From the IMG/VR virus record IMGVR_UViG_3300030098_000957, positions 1 through 39,708 of that record: a stretch of 39,708 nucleotides of DNA; one strand, written 5' to 3'. The first letter of the stretch is position 1. Each line of letters starts with the position of its first letter. The DNA comes from a virus. Below the pieces are notes generated by a model that was not told the origin of the DNA, did no database searches, and saw only the letters and a list, made by a program, of their open reading frames with translations. The position numbers and the translations under genes were made by a program. Of the stretch, positions 8,537 to 35,888 are shown piece by piece.

Positions 8537-11401
8537 TTATGTTGCTACTTGTCGATCAAGAATACCCAGATTAAGATAATTATCTGGACTGCCCTCAGTG
8601 AATGGAGTTACTTTACTAATACAACCCTCACAGCTACGACACCATGGATCTTGTGCCGTGATAAATACTGATGTCCATTCACTATCAATACCTACAGCTT
8701 CCTCAGCATTACCGCTAAGTCCACTATTTCTAAAGTTAACACCGTTGCCTACATATCGTAAAATATTTGTACCATTTATAGTATCATCATCATCGGCTCC
8801 ATCAGCTCCTGTACGAGATCCATTCATTCTAGTTAATTCATTATTATAACTAGCAGTAATCATATGTGCATCAGTGCTAAACCTATAAATATCTTGACAG
8901 AATATCGGTAAAACTCCGCATACTTCTGAAAGATCTAGATCGCCGCTACCATCATCTCTAAATGGACTAACGTGTTGCGCATCTTCACATGTATCTTGAT
9001 CTTCTAGATCTTCAATAAAGTTTTGATTGCCTCTACTGAAAAATCTCCTGTTAACATCATTATCATTACCAACTAAATCAGAGTACACAGCTAAAGCTTT
9101 TTGAAGTGTACAGGCTTGCATACTACCTAAAGATGTACAATAAGAGTCAAAATAAAAAGGCAAGCCTGTTAAACTAAATCCATCTGTACCTGCAGCACCA
9201 AATGTAATTTTAGATGTATTAGAATTACCGGGATATACTTTAAATGCTTCCGCATCCACAGTAACAGTCTGCAAATCACTACGACCTGCTGTTGTATCGT
9301 TTATTTCTCCGTCTCTAGTTTTTTGTTTAATATGATTAAATCCATTAACATTAAAACCAGCAGCTAGTTCAATATACGGAGCAAAAGGAATAACCTCATC
9401 AACCGCTTTGCCTATTAAAGATGCATCTCTTTGAAAAATATTTCTTTCTATCCTTGTAAATCTAGCTTCATCATTTTGAGGTAAAATATAATTATCTGGA
9501 AAACCATCTGCTGCGGTTGTTCCATCTGCTCTAACACCCGGAACATCTGCTAAATGATTTCCGTAATATCCAATATATTTATAGAAAGGAGTAATTTCAC
9601 CTGTATCTGGTCGCTGAATATACAACCTACCTTTATATGTATTTGTTGCACTATTGTAACCAATTGGAGGTGCATCTAAAATATTAATATCTGTTCGATA
9701 TTTAAATCTTTCATTTGTTTCAAAATCAAAACCACCCGGAGGAGTACTTCCACATCTATTTCCCTGTACGTTAGTAACACAAGGAATTAATGGAGGATTA
9801 GCAATACCTGCACTTAATGCATTATCTGAGCTTGATAAAATAGACGCTACAATAGTACCCTTATTTGACGTAACATCCGTACTAACAGATACGCTATTTA
9901 AAGTATAGTCAAAATCAATAGTAGAATTAATTCTTCTTCCATCAGGACATGGAGTAGATACAAGAGGAGTTTGATCAATAACTATATTTCTTTTATACTC
10001 TGCAGTAATAGTAATTGTCTGAGGTTTAAAATTATTAACATTGTTTCCACTTGTATCTTTAATACTTCTATCAGCTCCAATAATATTCTCTGATAAATTA
10101 TGACCTTCTAAACTATTTCTGCCCGGAGCTTGTTCATAATCTAATCCTATACTTCTCCCAAGACCGGGGCTATCTGGACCATCATTACAAATTGCAGCAC
10201 CATCAATTGACGGTAATAAATCTGGAGCTTCTGATGGATTAGAAGGTGTTATGGGTCTAGCAAAATTATTTCCATCTGAAAAATTATCTGCTATGGTACA
10301 GTCAATAGAATATGTTCTTGCAATTTGTACACTACATGGCCAAGTTGAAGGACAATCACTAAGAGTATCACTAAAGGTAGTATCTGTAATATCAATAATG
10401 TCATCAAGACCTTTAGTAGTTCTACTAGAGTCTCCTAACATAAAACCAAAGTATGCTTGCAAACAATCTTGACAGTTTTCTAAATAATCATAAGCACTAC
10501 CAGCTGATGTTCCACCTGTTGCATGGGTTTTAACTACAGGACTATTAACATAAGCATCAATTTTATAAGGATACTTTAATCTTGCAACAAAGTTATCTGA
10601 AACTGTTGCACAGTCTGGTTTAATTTGTTTTGTTCTATCTATAACTCTAAAAATATCTTCTGGTAATGAAGCACTTTTTACACCACCTGAGCCATTGCCA
10701 ACTAATCCAGCCTGAGTATCATCAGCAGTAGAGCTGCTTGGAGTTCCATAAACTGCAGCAGCATTACCACTAACATCAACTAAAGAACCAGACAATGTAA
10801 TATAATCGCCAATATCTAAAGGATTAGTTGCATTATTAGTTGATCCATCAATAGTGGCACCGATAACATTAAAGGCATAGTATTGTTGTCTTGCACAAGT
10901 AGTTGTATGGCTATCGCCGGTACAGTTGTATTTATTTTTTAACGCCTTTAAATTATTAGCCGTATCTACTTTAGATGCACTTGTACCGCCGCCTAGTATT
11001 TGGAAATAATCATTCTTATTACAAAGACATACCACAACCCACAGCTCATTATCCTGAGCAACAGACTCGTCTAGAATATTATCACAAGGATCACCGCCTG
11101 CACCGGGACTACCTACTGCATCATATAAGTCACTACCTGATACTCCAGTAAGAATTAAAGCATCTTTTGGTGGCGAGTTAGTACTAGTGCTTCTATCAAC
11201 AAGCCAGCCTAGTTTATCGCCACTAGTTCCTGCTGGATCGCAGTCATCAAACTGTGACTTGACATATACCTTAGTGTCAGCTACGCCTTCAAATACTGTT
11301 GTAGAAATGTAGGCAATCTCTGCAGCAAAACAACTAGTGTCACATCGAGTGCATTTAAAAAACTCTGGACAACATCGTTTGGTAATATCAGAAGACGGCA
11401 T
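8537..11401 (-). CDS. Large cysteine-rich virion/adhesin protein
   Basis: This 954-aa protein contains about 29 cysteines by my count, very unusual for a phage structural protein. They come as close pairs: RCC, CTRC and SC within the first 25 residues, VVCLC near 130, ENCQDC near 310, and CRSCEGC near the C-terminus. Between them lie Gly/Ser/Thr/Asp/Asn-rich beta-type stretches typical of tail fibres. There is no signal peptide. The gene is just downstream of tail B and a fibre-like gene, so a tail fibre, tip or baseplate-like role is likely. The cysteines may form disulphides after release or bind metal. The stop of the upstream gene is two bases from the ATG (TGATATG) and there is only a weak GGA upstream, so translation is probably coupled. 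I recognise no known domain. Confidence 0.85.
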   Translation of the reverse strand: MPSSDITKRCCPEFFKCTRCDTSCFAAEIAYISTTVFEGVADTKVYVKSQFDDCDPAGTSGDKLGWLVDRSTSTNSPPKDALILTGVSGSDLYDAVGSPGAGGDPCDNILDESVAQDNELWVVVCLCNKNDYFQILGGGTSASKVDTANNLKALKNKYNCTGDSHTTTCARQQYYAFNVIGATIDGSTNNATNPLDIGDYITLSGSLVDVSGNAAAVYGTPSSSTADDTQAGLVGNGSGGVKSASLPEDIFRVIDRTKQIKPDCATVSDNFVARLKYPYKIDAYVNSPVVKTHATGGTSAGSAYDYLENCQDCLQAYFGFMLGDSSRTTKGLDDIIDITDTTFSDTLSDCPSTWPCSVQIARTYSIDCTIADNFSDGNNFARPITPSNPSEAPDLLPSIDGAAICNDGPDSPGLGRSIGLDYEQAPGRNSLEGHNLSENIIGADRSIKDTSGNNVNNFKPQTITITAEYKRNIVIDQTPLVSTPCPDGRRINSTIDFDYTLNSVSVSTDVTSNKGTIVASILSSSDNALSAGIANPPLIPCVTNVQGNRCGSTPPGGFDFETNERFKYRTDINILDAPPIGYNSATNTYKGRLYIQRPDTGEITPFYKYIGYYGNHLADVPGVRADGTTAADGFPDNYILPQNDEARFTRIERNIFQRDASLIGKAVDEVIPFAPYIELAAGFNVNGFNHIKQKTRDGEINDTTAGRSDLQTVTVDAEAFKVYPGNSNTSKITFGAAGTDGFSLTGLPFYFDSYCTSLGSMQACTLQKALAVYSDLVGNDNDVNRRFFSRGNQNFIEDLEDQDTCEDAQHVSPFRDDGSGDLDLSEVCGVLPIFCQDIYRFSTDAHMITASYNNELTRMNGSRTGADGADDDDTINGTNILRYVGNGVNFRNSGLSGNAEEAVGIDSEWTSVFITAQDPWCRSCEGCISKVTPFTEGSPDNYLNLGILDRQVAT

Positions 11402-11402
11402 A

Positions 11403-12635
11403 TCAACACGGTCCTACAAGAGCATTAGTTGCACAGAAGTAATACAAACGACTAATGCCGTCTGTTCCAGTACGACCTGCTGTAGTATCTGTAGCAGTTC
11501 CCACTACAAGTTTTCTACGTTCAGTCATTTCAACAACAACTTGTTCATCTACTAATCGCCAACCCTCAGAATTAGATGTAAATCCTAAGTTTGTATTAGA
11601 AGTTTCAGAACTAGTTGACTCATAAGCTGTACCACTTTCTGATTCAGTTTCTGCTTGGTTATTACCAGAACCAGAAACATAAGATGCTACACCCCCAATA
11701 GGAATAACTCTAGCATTTGTAGGCCAGTCTCCATCTGCGTCTTGACCCGGAGTAGTACGAATACCGGGGAACACAAAATCTTTATCATTCATTAATTCAT
11801 GAATATTAAGAGCAGCATCAAGGTGAGTACCACCCGTGGCTGTATCTGACTCTCTTGCTAAGTCAGCATTTGCAATATTAACCTGCGGCACATTAGACTG
11901 TCCTTCAGTTGTAATTGCCACTGTTCCTGTTTGACTACCATCGGTCGTACTAAACTGAGGAGTAGGTCTATGGCCTTTATAATCACCGAGTGCAGTAAAT
12001 GTAAGCACAGCACCAGATCTCTCAATGCGATATACTCCGCTTTCTGAAGCTTCACTAACACAAAGTTTTAATGAACCACCATCAGCACTATCATCTAAAT
12101 CATGAAGATCGTCAAAGATTTTAATTGCGGCGTTTTCTGGAGTTTCGTTATTAGCAATATCTGCTGTAGTAACAGTTTGGAATGCACCAGAACTATTAGG
12201 GATTTTAATAGTATGATCTCCTGCAGAACCTGCTGCATTCGTAGCGATTGTAAGAGTCCAGATCTGAGCTACGTCATAAAAGGTGCTGCCTAAAGATACT
12301 TCTTCCCAAGCGTACAGGAATCGGTTAGGCAAGGCATTAGGAGTTGTTGTACTGTAGTCAGCATTTAAAGGTTTAAAGTGAGTAATACGAGCTAAGAATT
12401 TTTGTTCATCTACTACGGTTCTAACTTGGTTATTAAGCTCTTCACCTACAGGTAATCTGTCACCAATTTGACCATCTCCATAATGCAAATGAATAGCACC
12501 AAACTCTCTTGTACCATCAGTTGCAGTAAAGTTTCTGTTAGCTGGCATTTCTACCGTAATTTCACCTGCTGCACCTGTTGTAAAAGCACTATGATCTGCT
12601 TTACTTCCTCTACGCTTTTGTACTCTACTAGCCAT
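11403..12635 (-). CDS. Tail fibre-like protein
   Basis: The 410-aa product begins with a basic segment and a motif seen at the N-terminus of many phage fibres and tropism determinants: KRRGSKADHSAFTTGAAGE, then VEMPANRN and, near residue 50, HLHYGDG. The remainder is Gly/Ser/Thr/Asn-rich and predicted beta. It includes a segment at residues ~130-230 resembling a repeated structural insert (DHTIKIPNSSG, ETPENAAIKIFDDL) and a Ser/Glu/Thr-rich linker near 330-350. The ATG has AAGGAG seven bases upstream. Encoded directly after tail B, it is probably the adaptor or fibre that attaches to the tail nozzle. The motif assignment is from memory. Confidence 0.72.
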   Translation of the reverse strand: MASRVQKRRGSKADHSAFTTGAAGEITVEMPANRNFTATDGTREFGAIHLHYGDGQIGDRLPVGEELNNQVRTVVDEQKFLARITHFKPLNADYSTTTPNALPNRFLYAWEEVSLGSTFYDVAQIWTLTIATNAAGSAGDHTIKIPNSSGAFQTVTTADIANNETPENAAIKIFDDLHDLDDSADGGSLKLCVSEASESGVYRIERSGAVLTFTALGDYKGHRPTPQFSTTDGSQTGTVAITTEGQSNVPQVNIANADLARESDTATGGTHLDAALNIHELMNDKDFVFPGIRTTPGQDADGDWPTNARVIPIGGVASYVSGSGNNQAETESESGTAYESTSSETSNTNLGFTSNSEGWRLVDEQVVVEMTERRKLVVGTATDTTAGRTGTDGISRLYYFCATNALVGPC

Positions 12636-22597: not shown

Positions 22598-23683
22598 TTA
22601 CACAGTAATGGATGCTCTTGGAGCATCAGTTTTATAAGCATGACCTGCAGGTAGCAGATCCAACAGCCCATACTTTTGGGCAAAATATCCTTCTAGTTTT
22701 ACAATATCAGTATCAATAGCACCAGAGGTACCAGTTCCATTTAAAACAACCCACTCAAACATAGGGTCTTGAAATGCTCGAACATTAGCAGAACCGCTAT
22801 TGCCACCACCCCAGCCACCATCAACACCTTGAGCAACATGGGCTCTAGCATCTCCACCTTGACTAGCCTCAGATGTACCATTCAATCTAAATAAAGAATT
22901 GCCGCTAGTTCTACCAATAATAACTATTTGAGGTTGATTATCATTGAAAGTAACATCAGGATCATAAGTAAAGGTAGCTTCTCCACTTGCATGTCGTTTA
23001 CGAAGTTGAAATCTTTCATTAGCATTAAGAGTGTTATATCTAAAAATTATACCAAACTCGTTATTACCAGCACCATTACCTACAGTATTTCCATTATATG
23101 CCATAGTGCATTGATTTATACCAGTGTTAGCATGTTGATCTCGAAGTATAGCAACAAAACCCCAACACCAATCTTGAGTAGTATCGTGATCAATACCAGT
23201 TCCTAAGCTGGCAACTAATTGATCACTACTTCCAGTAGCAGTCATACCTCTAAAGTTATTAGCACTAGAATTTTTTGCAGCATATTCTGGTTGATCATTA
23301 GATACAGCTTGGCTAAAGTCTCTACCATTCCCCGAAGAATCTTCACAAACATTTACCCGATCTCCTGCATCATTAGTTGCCATATTCTCAGGATTGAGCC
23401 ATAGCTCACAGGTAGATCCTTCTGCAGATATAGGAGTCCAAATAGGACCAAGCTTATGAGTCCACTGTCTATCCCAAATTTCAGGAATTCTAAACTTGCG
23501 AACTTTATCCGCAAGCAAAGACTCTCTCACAGACAATACATAATCCTCTGTGCCTGATGCAATGAGTTGATTACGATTAGCAATTAAAGCAAACTTATCA
23601 AGATCGCCGTTGGTAGTACCACGAATTTCTAAAGATTGAATTCCTTCAACACCAACACCGTACTTAGTTTTGCCATTAGCCAT
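22598..23683 (-). CDS. LamG/concanavalin-like fibre or decoration protein
   Basis: The 361-aa protein holds a jelly-roll lectin-type domain at residues ~88-350. Signs are an opening CELWLNPEN...NVCEDSSGNGRDFSQA with a predicted Ca-binding DSSGNG turn, central beta strands (PQIVIIGRTSGNSLFRLNG), and the family-typical ending KLEGYFAQKYGLLDLLPAGHAYK. These LamG-like domains bind glycans and occur in secreted and fibre proteins. Residues 1-85 are a separate helical N-terminus, perhaps for virion attachment. GGGGG lies upstream of the ATG, which overlaps the previous gene by eight bases. Likely a receptor-binding or head-surface protein; it lies far from the tail genes, which favours decoration. 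Confidence 0.8.
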   Translation of the reverse strand: MANGKTKYGVGVEGIQSLEIRGTTNGDLDKFALIANRNQLIASGTEDYVLSVRESLLADKVRKFRIPEIWDRQWTHKLGPIWTPISAEGSTCELWLNPENMATNDAGDRVNVCEDSSGNGRDFSQAVSNDQPEYAAKNSSANNFRGMTATGSSDQLVASLGTGIDHDTTQDWCWGFVAILRDQHANTGINQCTMAYNGNTVGNGAGNNEFGIIFRYNTLNANERFQLRKRHASGEATFTYDPDVTFNDNQPQIVIIGRTSGNSLFRLNGTSEASQGGDARAHVAQGVDGGWGGGNSGSANVRAFQDPMFEWVVLNGTGTSGAIDTDIVKLEGYFAQKYGLLDLLPAGHAYKTDAPRASITV

Positions 23684-24731
23684 CGCAATTCCCCCATTCT
23701 GATAATACTTTTACAATTGCATTGAATCCATTGTTTGTTTGATAATGATATCTTTGACTACCTACATCACCAAGAACTTGCAATAAGTCTTGGAATCCAA
23801 CTATGCCATCTTCATTCAAGTCTGATGGGCAAGAGTTATCTGCGTCATATGCAATTTGATAAGGTGACGGCTCACATGGATGATCATTGCCACAAGCAAA
23901 CCGTACAACACCAGAGGACGCAAACCTGTTAGGACCAGTAAACCGAGCAATATGGAACGAACCCGGATACTTCTCACTCATCCAGTCAACGTCAGCGTCC
24001 CATCGAATCAGGTCGCCGTAGTCATTCTGCGATGGGGCAGAACAGCACCTTTGACCTTGAACCTCCCCAACTGGTATTGGCTGCCAAACTTTAAGCACCA
24101 TATTATTCCATGACTTTGGAGTAATTAGATCCTTGTGCTGCTGCTGAACCAACGGGTATTTGTATTGCTGCGAGTTGCCATACTTCTTGCCAAGTGGCCC
24201 ATGCAGAATCCAAGAGTCACACCATGCGTACTCAAGATCAACGAGGTCAGCCGTCCGGGGACAGCATCCCTGTGGGCCTTCAAACACCCAGTTAATTGGG
24301 GTAAAGTTCATGTTCAGATACATCCACCGCTGATATGGGTTGGCTTGTATACACTCCCAATACTCTCCGGCTTCGGGGCAAAGAATGCCAGTGTCTTGGT
24401 TCCAATAGTCTATGCACTCTTGGCAGTTCTCTAGCCAAGGGTACAGATGGTCTGGCCTGTGGTTTTTAAATACATCACCTTCAATCATCCACTGAAACGA
24501 TCTAGCTGGTGACTCATTACCACGAGTACAACCAATCATATACGGACGGCGTGGATCTCCATTAGGATAACTAAAGTCAGGATCAAAACCTGTTTGAATA
24601 TAAACATCAAAGGTTCTGCCAAACGGAGTTAACCTACCAAGATCATCAATCCACATAGCAACTGAATCAGGATCAGTTGGAGGCCCACTACCATTAATTA
24701 ATAAACAAGCCCCCAATAAACTATTCAGCAT
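23676..24731 (-). CDS. Cysteine-rich protein with dockerin-like calcium motif
   Basis: The 351-aa product starts at ATG 24731, chosen because AAGGAG is six bases upstream; an earlier in-frame ATG at 24755 would put that site inside the gene. The N-terminus MLNSLLGACLL contains a lipobox-like LGAC but lacks basic residues. The body is rich in Trp, Pro and Cys (WLENCQECIDYW, GCCPRTADLVD, QRCCSAPSQ), suggesting a disulphide-bonded extracellular protein. At the C-terminus CPSDLNEDGIVGFQDLLQV matches a dockerin/EF-hand calcium loop, and a second half-repeat ends AIVKVLSEWGNC. This paired module is common in secreted planctomycete proteins. The central part (24001-24060 and 24241-24300, 53-60% GC) is GC-richer than flanking genes, suggesting gain from a host. 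Likely a surface adhesin; function unknown. Confidence 0.82.
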   Translation of the reverse strand: MLNSLLGACLLINGSGPPTDPDSVAMWIDDLGRLTPFGRTFDVYIQTGFDPDFSYPNGDPRRPYMIGCTRGNESPARSFQWMIEGDVFKNHRPDHLYPWLENCQECIDYWNQDTGILCPEAGEYWECIQANPYQRWMYLNMNFTPINWVFEGPQGCCPRTADLVDLEYAWCDSWILHGPLGKKYGNSQQYKYPLVQQQHKDLITPKSWNNMVLKVWQPIPVGEVQGQRCCSAPSQNDYGDLIRWDADVDWMSEKYPGSFHIARFTGPNRFASSGVVRFACGNDHPCEPSPYQIAYDADNSCPSDLNEDGIVGFQDLLQVLGDVGSQRYHYQTNNGFNAIVKVLSEWGNCDG

Positions 24732-25021
24732 CTCCATCTCCTTCTTGCTGCACATATTCTTTTCTTTGGTGTTTTTTTACAATTAACACCATGCATTTTC
24801 ATTTGACCAGCAGACCTAGCGCAGTAACTCTTACGTCGCTTAGCTCTTTTACCTGTAGGTTTAGCTTCAGTCACAGCAGTTTTAAGTTTTGATCCGGGGT
24901 TTTGTCTACGGTATTTTGCCACGCCTTTAGCGGTCATTCCAGCACCCTTACTTGTAGGTCTTTTATCACCACTTTTAACTGACATACCTTTCATACTACC
25001 TTTACGTTTCTTTTTTGCCAT
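24725..25021 (-). CDS. Small basic protein with conserved C-terminal KRRKSYCAR domain
   Basis: The 98-aa protein is extremely basic. The N-terminus is a MAKKKRKGSMKGMS tail. From residue ~28 a conserved module follows: GMTAKGVAKYRRQNPGSKL, KPTGKRAKRRKSYCARS, and the end AARRRWRC. I recall the same layout (G-x-(T/S)AKGxxxYRRxxPG...RRKSFCAR...RxxW.C) in short uncharacterised proteins of marine phages and large algal viruses, possibly DUF6321, but cannot confirm the name. Five cysteines could bind metal. GGGGG lies upstream of the ATG. It is part of the tiny basic protein block; a DNA-associated virion role is inferred. Confidence 0.82.
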   Translation of the reverse strand: MAKKKRKGSMKGMSVKSGDKRPTSKGAGMTAKGVAKYRRQNPGSKLKTAVTEAKPTGKRAKRRKSYCARSAGQMKMHGVNCKKTPKKRICAARRRWRC

Positions 25022-25225: not shown

Positions 25226-25356
25226 TTCTTGCCTTTCTTTGCTTTAGCCTTCTTAATCTTTGCTTGCAAGAAAGGAGGCAACGTCTTTTGTGCTGCTGTT
25301 AACTTCTTGCCATTACCATTTTTCTTCATAGTTTTTTTCTTACCGTTTTTTCTCAT
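25222..25356 (-). CDS. Tiny lysine-rich protein with LTAAQKTLPPFLQ motif
   Basis: The 44-aa ORF starts at ATG 25356. Strongly basic ends (MRKNGKKKTMKKNGNGKK and KIKKAKAKKGKK) flank a short LTAAQKTLPPFLQ helix-breaking motif. I recall near-identical KLTxxQKKLPxxLQ peptides in many marine phage genomes, always short and uncharacterised. The start overlaps the previous gene by five bases and the stop overlaps the lipoprotein start. The conserved core with two basic tails suggests a real protein, perhaps bound to DNA or the head interior. Confidence 0.75.
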   Translation of the reverse strand: MRKNGKKKTMKKNGNGKKLTAAQKTLPPFLQAKIKKAKAKKGKK

Positions 25357-25685
25357 TTCTTTTTCCTCATGCGTTGGGTTTTACGTTTACTTGCTTCTTT
25401 CTTTTTAACGATATAAGAATGAGCAGCTGTTAGACTTCGCTTCTTAGCAGGATCTTTAGTCCTACCTTTAGCAACTCTTGAACGTTGTTCAATAAGATTA
25501 ATAATTTGAGACTGTCTCTTGTGTGACTTAGATTTAAAACTAGCTTGGCTTAGTGTTTTTCTAATATCTCCTACGCTACTGAACTTAACTGGTACAGTAT
25601 CTTTAGGATTCTCATCAGTATATAATCTACGACCTGATTTTTTAGGCTTCTTGCCAGTACCTTTAGCTGGATCTCTACGTTTCAT
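25353..25685 (-). CDS. Basic protein with conserved RRLYTDENPKDTV core
   Basis: The 110-aa protein has basic tails at both ends. Its conserved core spans residues ~17-95: GRRLYTDENPKDTVPVKFSSV, DIRKTL, KSHKRQSQIINLIEQRS, and AHSYIVKKK. From memory, the core resembles a short domain (perhaps DUF5824) found in phages and giant algal viruses, with a Y-T-D-x-(N/S)-P-x-D-T-V opening and a K-R motif. Function is not known to me. Its start overlaps the upstream gene stop as ATGA. It belongs to the tiny basic gene cluster between portal and scaffold. Confidence 0.8.
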   Translation of the reverse strand: MKRRDPAKGTGKKPKKSGRRLYTDENPKDTVPVKFSSVGDIRKTLSQASFKSKSHKRQSQIINLIEQRSRVAKGRTKDPAKKRSLTAAHSYIVKKKEASKRKTQRMRKKK

Positions 25686-25927
25686 TTTCTTGTCTTCTTC
25701 TTTTTAGTTTTCTTTTTCCAAGAAATACGAGCAGGTCCAGTCTTACGTTTGGCAGCTGAAGTACACTGAGACTTAGTGGGGCGACAGGCGGGATAGGGAC
25801 GGTTCTTATCTTTCTTCCCACTTCTGCCACAAGGTTTGCCGGTCTTGCAGTCGATCCAACCTTTACCTTTATTCTGGGAGAACCACTTGCGTAAACCACC
25901 AGATGTAGCAGATTTCTTTTTAGCCAT
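25682..25927 (-). CDS. Basic protein with conserved KWFSQNKGKGW...PCGR motif
   Basis: The 81-aa protein begins MAKKKSATSGGLRKWF. It has the conserved segment GWIDCKTGKPCGR, then NRPYPACRPTKSQC and a poly-basic end (WKKKTKKKKTRK). Four cysteines (ID-C, P-C-G-R, A-C-R-P, Q-C) could form a zinc site. I recall the GGLKRWF..KWVD....PCGR...YP.C.P pattern in marine phages and algal viruses (perhaps DUF5872). The ATG has no strong ribosome site and lies four bases after the stop of the 54-aa gene, so coupling is likely. Confidence 0.82.
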   Translation of the reverse strand: MAKKKSATSGGLRKWFSQNKGKGWIDCKTGKPCGRSGKKDKNRPYPACRPTKSQCTSAAKRKTGPARISWKKKTKKKKTRK

Positions 25928-25930
25928 TAC

Positions 25931-26095
25931 TTACTTCTTTCTTTTACTCTTATTGCCGTAGTTAGCAGCACCTACTTTTCGGCACTGTACAATTCTACCA
26001 GATGCATACGCAGATGGAAAGACCTTAGCCTTTGCTTTTACTTTACGATAGCATGCATCTTTGTTGGTTTTTTTCTTAGCTTTCTTCTTAGCCAT
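25931..26095 (-). CDS. Tiny basic protein with CYRKVKAK...PSAYASG motif
   Basis: The 54-aa ORF starts at ATG 26095 with AAGGAGG five bases upstream. After MAKKKAKKKTNKD it carries a conserved CYRKVKAKAKVFPSAYASG stretch, then QCRKVGAANYG and a basic tail. I recall this exact style (A/K-rich tail, CYxKVKxxYxVFPSAYASGxxxxCRKxGA) in marine phages and giant viruses, where function is unknown. It has two conserved cysteines. It leads the row of five basic genes that follow the 268-aa-class gene and overlaps that gene by eight bases. Confidence 0.82.
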   Translation of the reverse strand: MAKKKAKKKTNKDACYRKVKAKAKVFPSAYASGRIVQCRKVGAANYGNKSKRKK

Positions 26096-26897
26096 TACGC
26101 CTCCTTGGTTTCCAAAATAATAATAAGGGCAACGCCCACACTCCTTTAGACTCAGCCACTACAATCATCTCAGGCTCAGGTTGAATAACAACAGGAGGTG
26201 GAGGAATGTATTCGTCTGGTTGATCTATTTTAATTTCTTTTACTTCAGCTTGCTCAATAGATAGAGTTTCTTCTTCAGTAACTAATTCAATTAAAGACTC
26301 TTCAGCCTCTAGCTCTTCAACAAGTTCTTCTACTTCAGCTCTAGCAACAAAGTAACCAATACCTTCTGCAATAGAATAGTCTTCATCTTCGGTTAAAAAG
26401 AAATATTCTTTCTCAGCAGCCTGAGTTAAGTCAGCTTCTGTCTCTAAATCTTGTGCAGGATTAGGAATACTAGCCCATGAATCTTCAAGTAAATCAAACT
26501 TCATGCCTTCTTTAGCATCAAAAATACTATCTTGATCTCCATCAACTAACACAGCACCGCCTGCTGTATCATTATCAGGCATCTTAATTTCTGGAGTAAT
26601 CCAATCTAAATCAAGAGCATAAGGATCTTTAGTTGATTTAGGTGCTGCACCAAGCGTATCTGTAAGACCAGTAACCTGTTCTACCGTTTCAGTTACCTTA
26701 CTTAATACTTCACCACCAACTACCGTGCCAGTAACAGCAGCAGCAAGAGTCATCTTCTGCACTTTTTTCTCAAGACCCTGCTTAATGTTAGCACAATCTT
26801 CGTATGCAGTCTTTAACTTACGATTGTTTTCTTCACGACAATCTTCTAACTGTTGCTTAATTCTAACAAGTTGTTCTTGTAATTCTGTATTGTCCAC
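26088..26897 (-). CDS. Acidic coiled-coil protein with C-terminal hydrophobic-basic tail
   Basis: The 269-aa product starts at a GTG (26897) after a GGGGG-type site. Residues 1-48 form a coiled coil (LQEQLVRIKQQLEDCREEN), followed by a Gly/Ala/Val-rich hydrophobic segment (MTLAAAVTGTVVGGEVL). Residues ~90-245 are very acidic, with runs of Glu, and Pro-rich near the end (PPPPVVIQPEPE). It ends in GVWALPLLLFWKPRRRNG: a short hydrophobic stretch plus an Arg cluster, the outline of a C-terminal sorting or tail-anchor signal. It is encoded between portal and the basic-protein cluster. The acid/basic contrast suggests it could hold or counter the lysine-rich peptides. Function unknown. Confidence 0.75.
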   Translation of the reverse strand: MDNTELQEQLVRIKQQLEDCREENNRKLKTAYEDCANIKQGLEKKVQKMTLAAAVTGTVVGGEVLSKVTETVEQVTGLTDTLGAAPKSTKDPYALDLDWITPEIKMPDNDTAGGAVLVDGDQDSIFDAKEGMKFDLLEDSWASIPNPAQDLETEADLTQAAEKEYFFLTEDEDYSIAEGIGYFVARAEVEELVEELEAEESLIELVTEEETLSIEQAEVKEIKIDQPDEYIPPPPVVIQPEPEMIVVAESKGVWALPLLLFWKPRRRNG

Positions 26898-35444: not shown

Positions 35445-35888
35445 TTATTCCTTTCTATTTCTCCTACCAAGGCCAGCGAGCCCAAGCATAGCCAGAGCAC
35501 CGGGGGCAGGAATTAAGTTTCCGTCAAACTGAGTACCAATGGTAGTGAAGAAGTCATAAGATCCTTCTTCTGCATTAAAGAGAACAGCTTGTTGAAACTC
35601 ATAGCCATACGCTTCATCAGTAGTGTAGCTGTAGCTAACGGTTTCACCGGGACTAACTTCTACATTCCAAGTGACAGTATCATCAATAACAAGATCGAAG
35701 ATAGCAATATCAGATGTTGCATCATTTGAGAATGTATAAACAAACAGCTCTGAGTTTGCTTCTTCATCTAAGAAGTATGAAGCAACAAAGCTACCTGTCC
35801 ACTGAAAATCTTCACCAGCATCACCTACATAGGTTTGCTCAGTATAGTCTGGTCCTGCAAGACCAGCTAACAATAATTCTAATAACAT
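35445..35888 (-). CDS. PEP-CTERM-like exported protein
   Basis: The 147-aa product ends with a tripartite C-terminal signal: a Pro-rich start (LIPAPGAL), a short hydrophobic helix (AMLGLAGLG) and an Arg-rich tail (RRNRKE). This is the design of PEP-CTERM signals cut by exosortases in biofilm-forming Gram-negative bacteria, and the variant PAPGALALLGLAGLxxRRR is typical, from memory, of Planctomycetes. The body (residues ~15-120) is acidic, beta-rich and aromatic (FQWTGSFVASYFLDEEANSELFVYTF, VTWNVEVSPGETVSYSYTT). The N-terminus MLLELLLAGLAG is hydrophobic but lacks a basic start, so export may be unusual. GGAG lies seven bases upstream of the ATG. It sits between the tRNA genes and primase-helicase, where T7 has lysozyme. 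Confidence 0.85.
   Translation of the reverse strand: MLLELLLAGLAGPDYTEQTYVGDAGEDFQWTGSFVASYFLDEEANSELFVYTFSNDATSDIAIFDLVIDDTVTWNVEVSPGETVSYSYTTDEAYGYEFQQAVLFNAEEGSYDFFTTIGTQFDGNLIPAPGALAMLGLAGLGRRNRKE

What the first reader, a model, noticed from the sequence alone, without database searches (positions are those of the whole stretch)
23676..24731. Dockerin-like, cysteine-rich phage protein that looks like a planctomycete secreted protein
Seen: CPSDLNEDGIVGFQDLL calcium-loop motif, second half ending VLSEWGNC, many Cys/Trp, lipobox-like LGAC, and a locally GC-rich core (24241-24300 is 60% GC by count; 22921-22980 is 30%). Known from memory: this motif pair is typical of secreted Planctomycetes/Phycisphaerales proteins. 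Inferred: recent capture from the host, serving as adhesin or surface-display protein during infection.
Basis: partly seen in the sequence, partly recalled or inferred. Interest (0 to 1): 0.74.

Follow-up and report, generated by a model that had tools for sequence, protein, structure and literature searches.

The report
Phage-borne secreted protein with host tag
Many otherwise unrelated marine phages carry the same exported, cysteine-rich protein ending in the calcium-loop tag that marine Phycisphaerae planctomycetes put on tens of their own secreted proteins; it comes and goes at a fixed spot even between close phage relatives, so it is probably a swappable weapon or shield used at the surface of the infected cell.

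Summary
In detail: a 351-aa protein (start 24731, minus strand, good ribosome site) with a hydrophobic leader, 15 Cys, 14 Trp and a C-terminal dockerin-like loop CPSDLNEDGIVGFQDLL…VLSEWGNC. The last ~50 residues are homologous to C-terminal tags carried in 16-56 copies by five of six Phycisphaerae MAGs searched (HHalign 98.9%, E 3e-17), and another window protein has a PEP-CTERM tag of the same hosts, so a Phycisphaerae host is likely. But it is not a recent capture. The same protein occurs in at least 80 IMG/VR contigs (61-100% identity), including T7-like, T4-like and other phages that often share nothing else with the window. Its tree conflicts with the portal tree, dN/dS is ~0.03-0.09, its GC3 equals the capsid gene's, and its first ~290 residues were not found in 397 Phycisphaerae genomes. 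The LGAC lipobox is not conserved. In close portal relatives the gene is present or cleanly absent between the same neighbours: an exchangeable accessory gene. Best reading: an exported late protein held at the host envelope by a host-type tag; superinfection exclusion or surface remodelling is the likeliest role (inferred). New variant of the exported phage-moron kind.

The parts
23676..24731 (-). exported dockerin-tagged phage protein ('DOCK'), 351 aa, from ATG at 24731
   Evidence: ORF; SD AAGGAG at 24738-24743; at least 80 viral relatives
24687..24731 (-). hydrophobic N-terminal leader (residues 1-15), signal-peptide-like
   Evidence: 56/56 members have a 10-aa hydrophobic core of at least 1.88 KD (52 at 2.0 or more) against 6% of 638 other ORFs at 2.0 or more; sequence itself not conserved (38% majority against 80-92% in most of the mature part); canonical Sec-type leaders in L031, L071, L010
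23832..24686 (-). Cys-rich mature domain (residues 16-300), no known family; predicted beta strands in residues 24-84 and 211-296, low-confidence model
   Evidence: no Pfam/PHROG/NCBIfam/PDB match; AF2 pLDDT 61; no fold match
23685..23831 (-). C-terminal dockerin-like tag (residues 301-349), bounded by invariant Cys301 and Cys349
   Evidence: HHalign to Phycisphaerae tags prob 98.9, E 3.4e-17; AF2 two-helix model pLDDT 81
23787..23822 (-). intact EF-hand/dockerin Ca2+ loop D-L-N-E-D-G-I-V-G-F-Q-D (residues 304-315)
   Evidence: near-invariant in 56 sequences
23685..23762 (-). second half-repeat with its Ca2+ loop lost; helix and WGxC end kept
   Evidence: alignment with host tags A4
24725..25021 (-). 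small Lys/Arg-rich protein (98 aa), upstream boundary of the DOCK insertion site
22598..23683 (-). virion structural protein (phrog_10356, head and packaging), downstream boundary of the DOCK insertion site
35445..35888 (-). second exported window protein: leader plus PEP-CTERM-like C-terminus PAPGALAMLGLAGLGRRNRKE
   Evidence: 51% identity over 72 aa and up to 80% at the tag to Phycisphaerae proteins; Pfam PEP-CTERM E 0.047, below cut-off
26088..26897 (-). coiled-coil/membrane protein with PEP-CTERM-like hydrophobic plus basic end (WALPLLLFWKPRRRNG); resembles cluster C2, found beside DOCK in other phages

Best explanation
DOCK is an accessory, horizontally exchanged phage gene expressed from the structural operon. 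Its product is exported by the host's Sec system, folds as a disulfide-rich protein outside the cytoplasm, and is held in the host envelope or surface matrix by a C-terminal dockerin-like tag of the type that marine Phycisphaerae use on their own secreted enzymes. There it most likely changes the surface of the already infected cell against competing phages (superinfection exclusion or receptor masking) or remodels the envelope. Shown by sequence: leader, conserved cysteines, host-type tag, accessory status, spread across unrelated phages, purifying selection. Inferred: actual export, Ca2+ binding, envelope retention, host identity. Speculative: the exclusion role (about 0.3 on its own).
For: Leader in 56/56 members; 10 invariant Cys; tag homologous to host tags, present in 16-56 copies in five of six Phycisphaerae MAGs and found there on GH66, GH16/CBM and arylsulfotransferase proteins. 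Same phages carry other host-type exported proteins: PEP-CTERM protein in the window and C15 next to DOCK in T4-like phages, with a host homologue over 176 aa; exosortase in 10/10 host genomes. Unbiased portal scan: gene present in L045, L011, L145, L087, L046 but cleanly absent between the same neighbours in L139, L143/L144, L150, L152, L155. DOCK and portal identities uncorrelated (r 0.10, 82 pairs) and trees conflict with 100/100 support. dN/dS 0.03-0.09 where dS is not saturated.
Against: Many leaders, the window's included, are short and lack a basic n-region, so export efficiency is unproven. No cohesin (PF00963) in 10 Phycisphaerae genomes, so the partner of the tag is unknown. The gene lies among head genes and has capsid-like codon use, which also fits a virion protein. 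Host link rests on tags, not on CRISPR spacers or isolates.
Confidence: 0.5

Rival explanations
1. Virion decoration or adhesin: DOCK is attached to the capsid or tail and the dockerin-like tag or the Cys-rich domain binds the host surface or extracellular matrix on infection.
For: Gene lies in the head gene cluster, right after the major head gene (phrog_138) in T4-like L031/L033 and beside a virion protein here; capsid-like codon use.
Against: Signal-peptide-like leader in all members, which would send it out of the cytoplasm where virions assemble; shared by phages with unrelated heads; absent from close relatives that keep all surrounding head genes.
Confidence: 0.2
2. Recently captured host gene: a Phycisphaerae secreted protein taken up by this phage.
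For: The tag is of host type and the core is more GC-rich than the window mean.
Against: At least 80 diverse viral contigs; residues 1-290 not found in 397 class genomes; GC3 like capsid and helicase; saturated dS between members.
Confidence: 0.05
3. Envelope-disrupting or lysis-aiding factor: exported late and used to loosen the planctomycete outer envelope or matrix so that progeny escape.
For: Late operon position, leader, disulfide-rich; lysozyme-like cluster C9 lies near DOCK in several phages.
Against: Close relatives do without it; no catalytic family recognised.
Confidence: 0.2
4. Decoy or inhibitor of a host surface protein network: the tag competes with host tags for their unknown acceptor.
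For: Host genomes carry tens of such tags; the phage tag keeps one Ca2+ loop and loses the other.
Against: No acceptor known; canonical cohesin absent; the large conserved N-terminal domain suggests a function beyond the tag.
Confidence: 0.1

Closest known systems
Dockerin type I domain (PF00404) and Phycisphaerae C-terminal dockerin-like tags
   Same: C-terminal place, Cys-Pro-x-D-L-N-x-D-G-x-V-x-x-x-D-L-L loop, two-repeat layout ending WGxC; profile match E 3.4e-17 to host tags
   Different: Below detection by PF00404 itself; second Ca2+ loop lost; no cohesin partner found in host genomes
PEP-CTERM/exosortase sorting (PF07589, PF09721)
   Same: Other proteins of the same phages (35445-35888; cluster C15) carry this host sorting signal and host genomes have exosortase
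   Different: DOCK itself has no PEP-CTERM; it shares only the idea of a host-type C-terminal sorting tag
Exported phage morons for superinfection exclusion (T5 Llp, phi80/N15 Cor; from general knowledge)
   Same: Accessory, exported, mobile between phages
   Different: Those are small lipoproteins or membrane proteins; DOCK is a 350-aa Cys-rich protein with a host-type tag, and its function is untested
'Planctosome' cohesin/dockerin modules of freshwater planctomycetes (PMC6461901)
   Same: Dockerin-type modules on secreted planctomycete proteins outside cellulose degradation
   Different: Bacterial, with cohesins; nothing phage-borne is described in the passages read

Membership tests
Dockerin type I (PF00404) | Score above the Pfam gathering cut-off | tested here: not met
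   No hit in the protein nor in the window at E<=1; host tags themselves are sub-threshold, E 0.004-0.04
Dockerin type I (PF00404) | Two Ca2+-binding loop-helix repeats | tested here: not met
   First loop intact and near-invariant; second loop lost
Dockerin type I (PF00404) | Dockerin fold | tested here: inconclusive
   AF2 two-helix model pLDDT 81; Foldseek finds no dockerin in the PDB; profile search gives weak EF-hand/dockerin matches, E 0.01-0.13
Dockerin type I (PF00404) | Binds a cohesin | not testable with these tools
   No PF00963 in 10 Phycisphaerae genomes
Phycisphaerae C-terminal dockerin-like tags | Homology over the full tag at the protein's C-terminus | tested here: met
   HHalign 53 columns, prob 98.9; terminal position in nearly all host examples
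Sec-exported proteins | N-terminal hydrophobic leader followed by a mature domain | tested here: met
   a dedicated signal-peptide predictor was not available
Bacterial lipoprotein (lipobox) | Conserved L-x-x-C lipobox at the leader end | tested here: not met
   LGAC Cys present only in the window's own sequence type
Exported superinfection-exclusion morons | Accessory, exchangeable gene absent from close relatives | tested here: met
Exported superinfection-exclusion morons | Blocks adsorption or DNA entry of other phages | not testable with these tools
   Needs an infection assay
Recently captured host gene | Close full-length bacterial homologue and atypical composition | tested here: not met

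The most novel reading that the evidence does not exclude
Phages of several unrelated types that infect marine Phycisphaerae share an exchangeable set of exported proteins carrying the host's own C-terminal sorting tags (dockerin-like and PEP-CTERM), so that the host's surface-sorting machinery dresses the infected cell with phage proteins, chiefly DOCK, to keep rival phages out.
Probability: 0.3. Interest if true: 0.85.

Novelty: new variant of a known kind. Interest (0 to 1): 0.62.

Why it matters
A gene 60-90% identical across phages whose heads and polymerases barely resemble each other must serve something common to their hosts. It offers a sequence marker for phages of uncultured marine Phycisphaerae, and suggests that phages can use dockerin-like and PEP-CTERM sorting of the host, for which I found no report in the paper library searched. 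It also gives a handle on what these very abundant planctomycete tags do, an open question since canonical cohesins were not found in 10 such genomes.

Tried and rejected
Recent capture: rejected. Lipoprotein: rejected, lipobox Cys not conserved. Known enzyme or virion family: none found. Fold match of the full model: none, but the model is poor, pLDDT 61. Fold match of the tag: none at E<=0.001. Search of isolated phages: none of 50,697 records has it. Search for a second, more distant branch from another part of the protein (A7): returned nearly the same contigs, so the family looks compact. One search scored only 7 candidates per genome and was swamped by tags, so the N-terminal part was re-searched alone. 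That empty search has no positive control of its own.

Full report
The thing itself. The window is an IMG/VR virus record of a T7-like podovirus (portal phrog_449, terminase phrog_38, capsid phrog_267, scaffold, tail proteins), related only distantly (about 30% at the portal) to Pelagibacter, cyanophage and other podoviruses. The finding's ORF is real. Its start at 24731 has AAGGAG six bases upstream, and it overlaps both neighbouring genes by a few bases. No Pfam, PHROG, NCBIfam or PDB sequence matches the protein, and none of 50,697 phage records holds it.

A phage family. Scans of IMG/VR found at least 80 contigs encoding it at 61-100% identity; a scan with a different part of the protein returned nearly the same set. 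In an alignment of 56 members most of the mature part is 80-92% majority-identical, ten cysteines are invariant, and the leader varies in sequence (38%) while staying hydrophobic in all 56; only 6% of 638 other ORFs reach the level that 52 of the 56 reach. Several leaders are textbook Sec signals (MRHFLTLVVCTLSSFSFA-S, MKKIVCMLCGIFTFSSFA-S). The LGAC 'lipobox' is confined to the window's own type. I infer export and disulfides; no signal-peptide predictor was available.

The C-terminal tag. Residues 301-349 run from Cys-Pro-Ser-Asp-Leu-Asn-Glu-Asp-Gly to Trp-Gly-x-Cys. A scan of 11.3 million genome contigs gave full-length matches only in Phycisphaerae/Planctomycetes; Flavobacteriales matched only the first half-repeat. 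Profile comparison with those host tags gives 98.9% probability, E 3.4e-17, over 53 columns. The phage keeps the first Ca2+ loop but has lost the second. Five of six Phycisphaerae MAGs searched carry 16-56 such matches, on proteins such as GH66, GH16/CBM and arylsulfotransferase. It is dockerin-like rather than a Pfam dockerin: PF00404 does not reach E 1 in the window, no PDB fold match was found, and no canonical cohesin was found in 10 host genomes.

The rest is not found in bacteria. Residues 1-289 gave no match in 397 genomes of the class; an earlier search with the whole protein found mainly tags. The AF2 model of the whole protein is poor (pLDDT 61) and matches nothing.

Other host-type tags. 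Window protein 35445-35888 ends in a PEP-CTERM-like signal whose last 25-28 residues are up to 80% identical to those of Phycisphaerae proteins, and one host protein matches over 72 residues at 51%. All 10 Phycisphaerae genomes tested have an exosortase. In T4-like phages the gene next to DOCK or one further (cluster C15, ~210 aa) has a leader and a PEP-CTERM end, with a host homologue over 176 residues (31%, E 1.5e-8). Five of those loci also carry a 278-aa second dockerin-tagged protein, found in nine viral loci in all. Together these make a Phycisphaerae host likely; nothing here proves it.

Not a recent capture but an exchanged accessory gene. The contigs include T4-like (head phrog_138, baseplate wedge), T7-like and other terminase/portal types. 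DOCK identity is uncorrelated with portal identity (r 0.10 over 82 pairs): L012 and L076 share 95% of the portal but 59% of DOCK; L012 and L058 share 88% of DOCK but 25% of the portal. Of 2485 pairs of loci, 1613 share nothing but DOCK in the DNA held; held stretches are limited to about 10 kb per side, so this is an upper figure. Portal and DOCK trees conflict with 100/100 support. An unbiased scan with the portal found close relatives (76-92%) in which the gene is missing cleanly between the same two neighbours (L139, L143/L144, L150, L152, L155), and others that have it (L045, L011, L145, L087, L046). dN/dS is 0.03-0.09 where dS is not saturated. GC3 (0.40) equals that of the capsid (0.41) and helicase (0.40), so the GC-rich core is not a mark of foreign origin.

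How it most likely works. Late in infection DOCK is made with the head proteins, exported through Sec, oxidised outside the cytoplasm, and kept at the host envelope or matrix by the host-type tag. An exported, optional, swapped protein shared by unrelated phages of what looks like one host group fits a role in competition at the cell surface, most simply superinfection exclusion, with envelope remodelling or lysis help as rivals and a virion role less likely because of the leader and the clean absences. The exclusion step is inference.

Literature. Searches for dockerin or PEP-CTERM together with phage and planctomycetes found no report of such phage proteins; the library lacks many subscription papers. 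Cohesin/dockerin modules are described in freshwater planctomycetes (PMC6461901), and one chronic phage of a cultured Phycisphaerae is described (PMC10945688).

Noticed in passing
window 35445-35888 (-): Phage-encoded exported protein with a PEP-CTERM-like end nearly identical to Phycisphaerae sorting signals; apparently unreported in phages in the library searched.
   Followed up: partly
L065, L069, L071, L073, L074 (278-aa ORF next to DOCK): A second dockerin-tagged exported protein (GRMTPYGNTYRFFI start motif resembling DOCK's GRLTPFGRTFDVYI), possibly a distant paralogue.
   Followed up: partly
L031, L065, L069, L071, L073, L074, L010, L018, L039 (cluster C15): About 210-aa PEP-CTERM-tagged secreted protein beside DOCK in T4-like phages, with host homologues.
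   Followed up: partly
window 24725-25021, 25353-25685, 25682-25927 (-): Small Lys/Arg-rich, protamine-like proteins kept near DOCK across phages with unrelated heads (lys98/lys81, up to 96% identical between contigs).
   Followed up: no
window 26088-26897 (-): Coiled-coil/membrane protein with PEP-CTERM-like hydrophobic plus basic end; same layout as cluster C2 (25 loci), often adjacent to DOCK.
   Followed up: partly
window 11403-12635 (-): Weak Mtd_N (major tropism determinant N-terminal) match, E 1.1e-4, below cut-off; no diversity-generating element was looked for.
   Followed up: no
window 8537-11401 (-): 954-aa protein with 29 Cys between packaging and tail genes, no family; possible host-recognition protein.
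   Followed up: no
L071:12342-15479: 1045-aa fusion of cytidyltransferase-like, RimK-type ATP-grasp and RloA2-like retropepsin domains in a DOCK-bearing phage.
   Followed up: no
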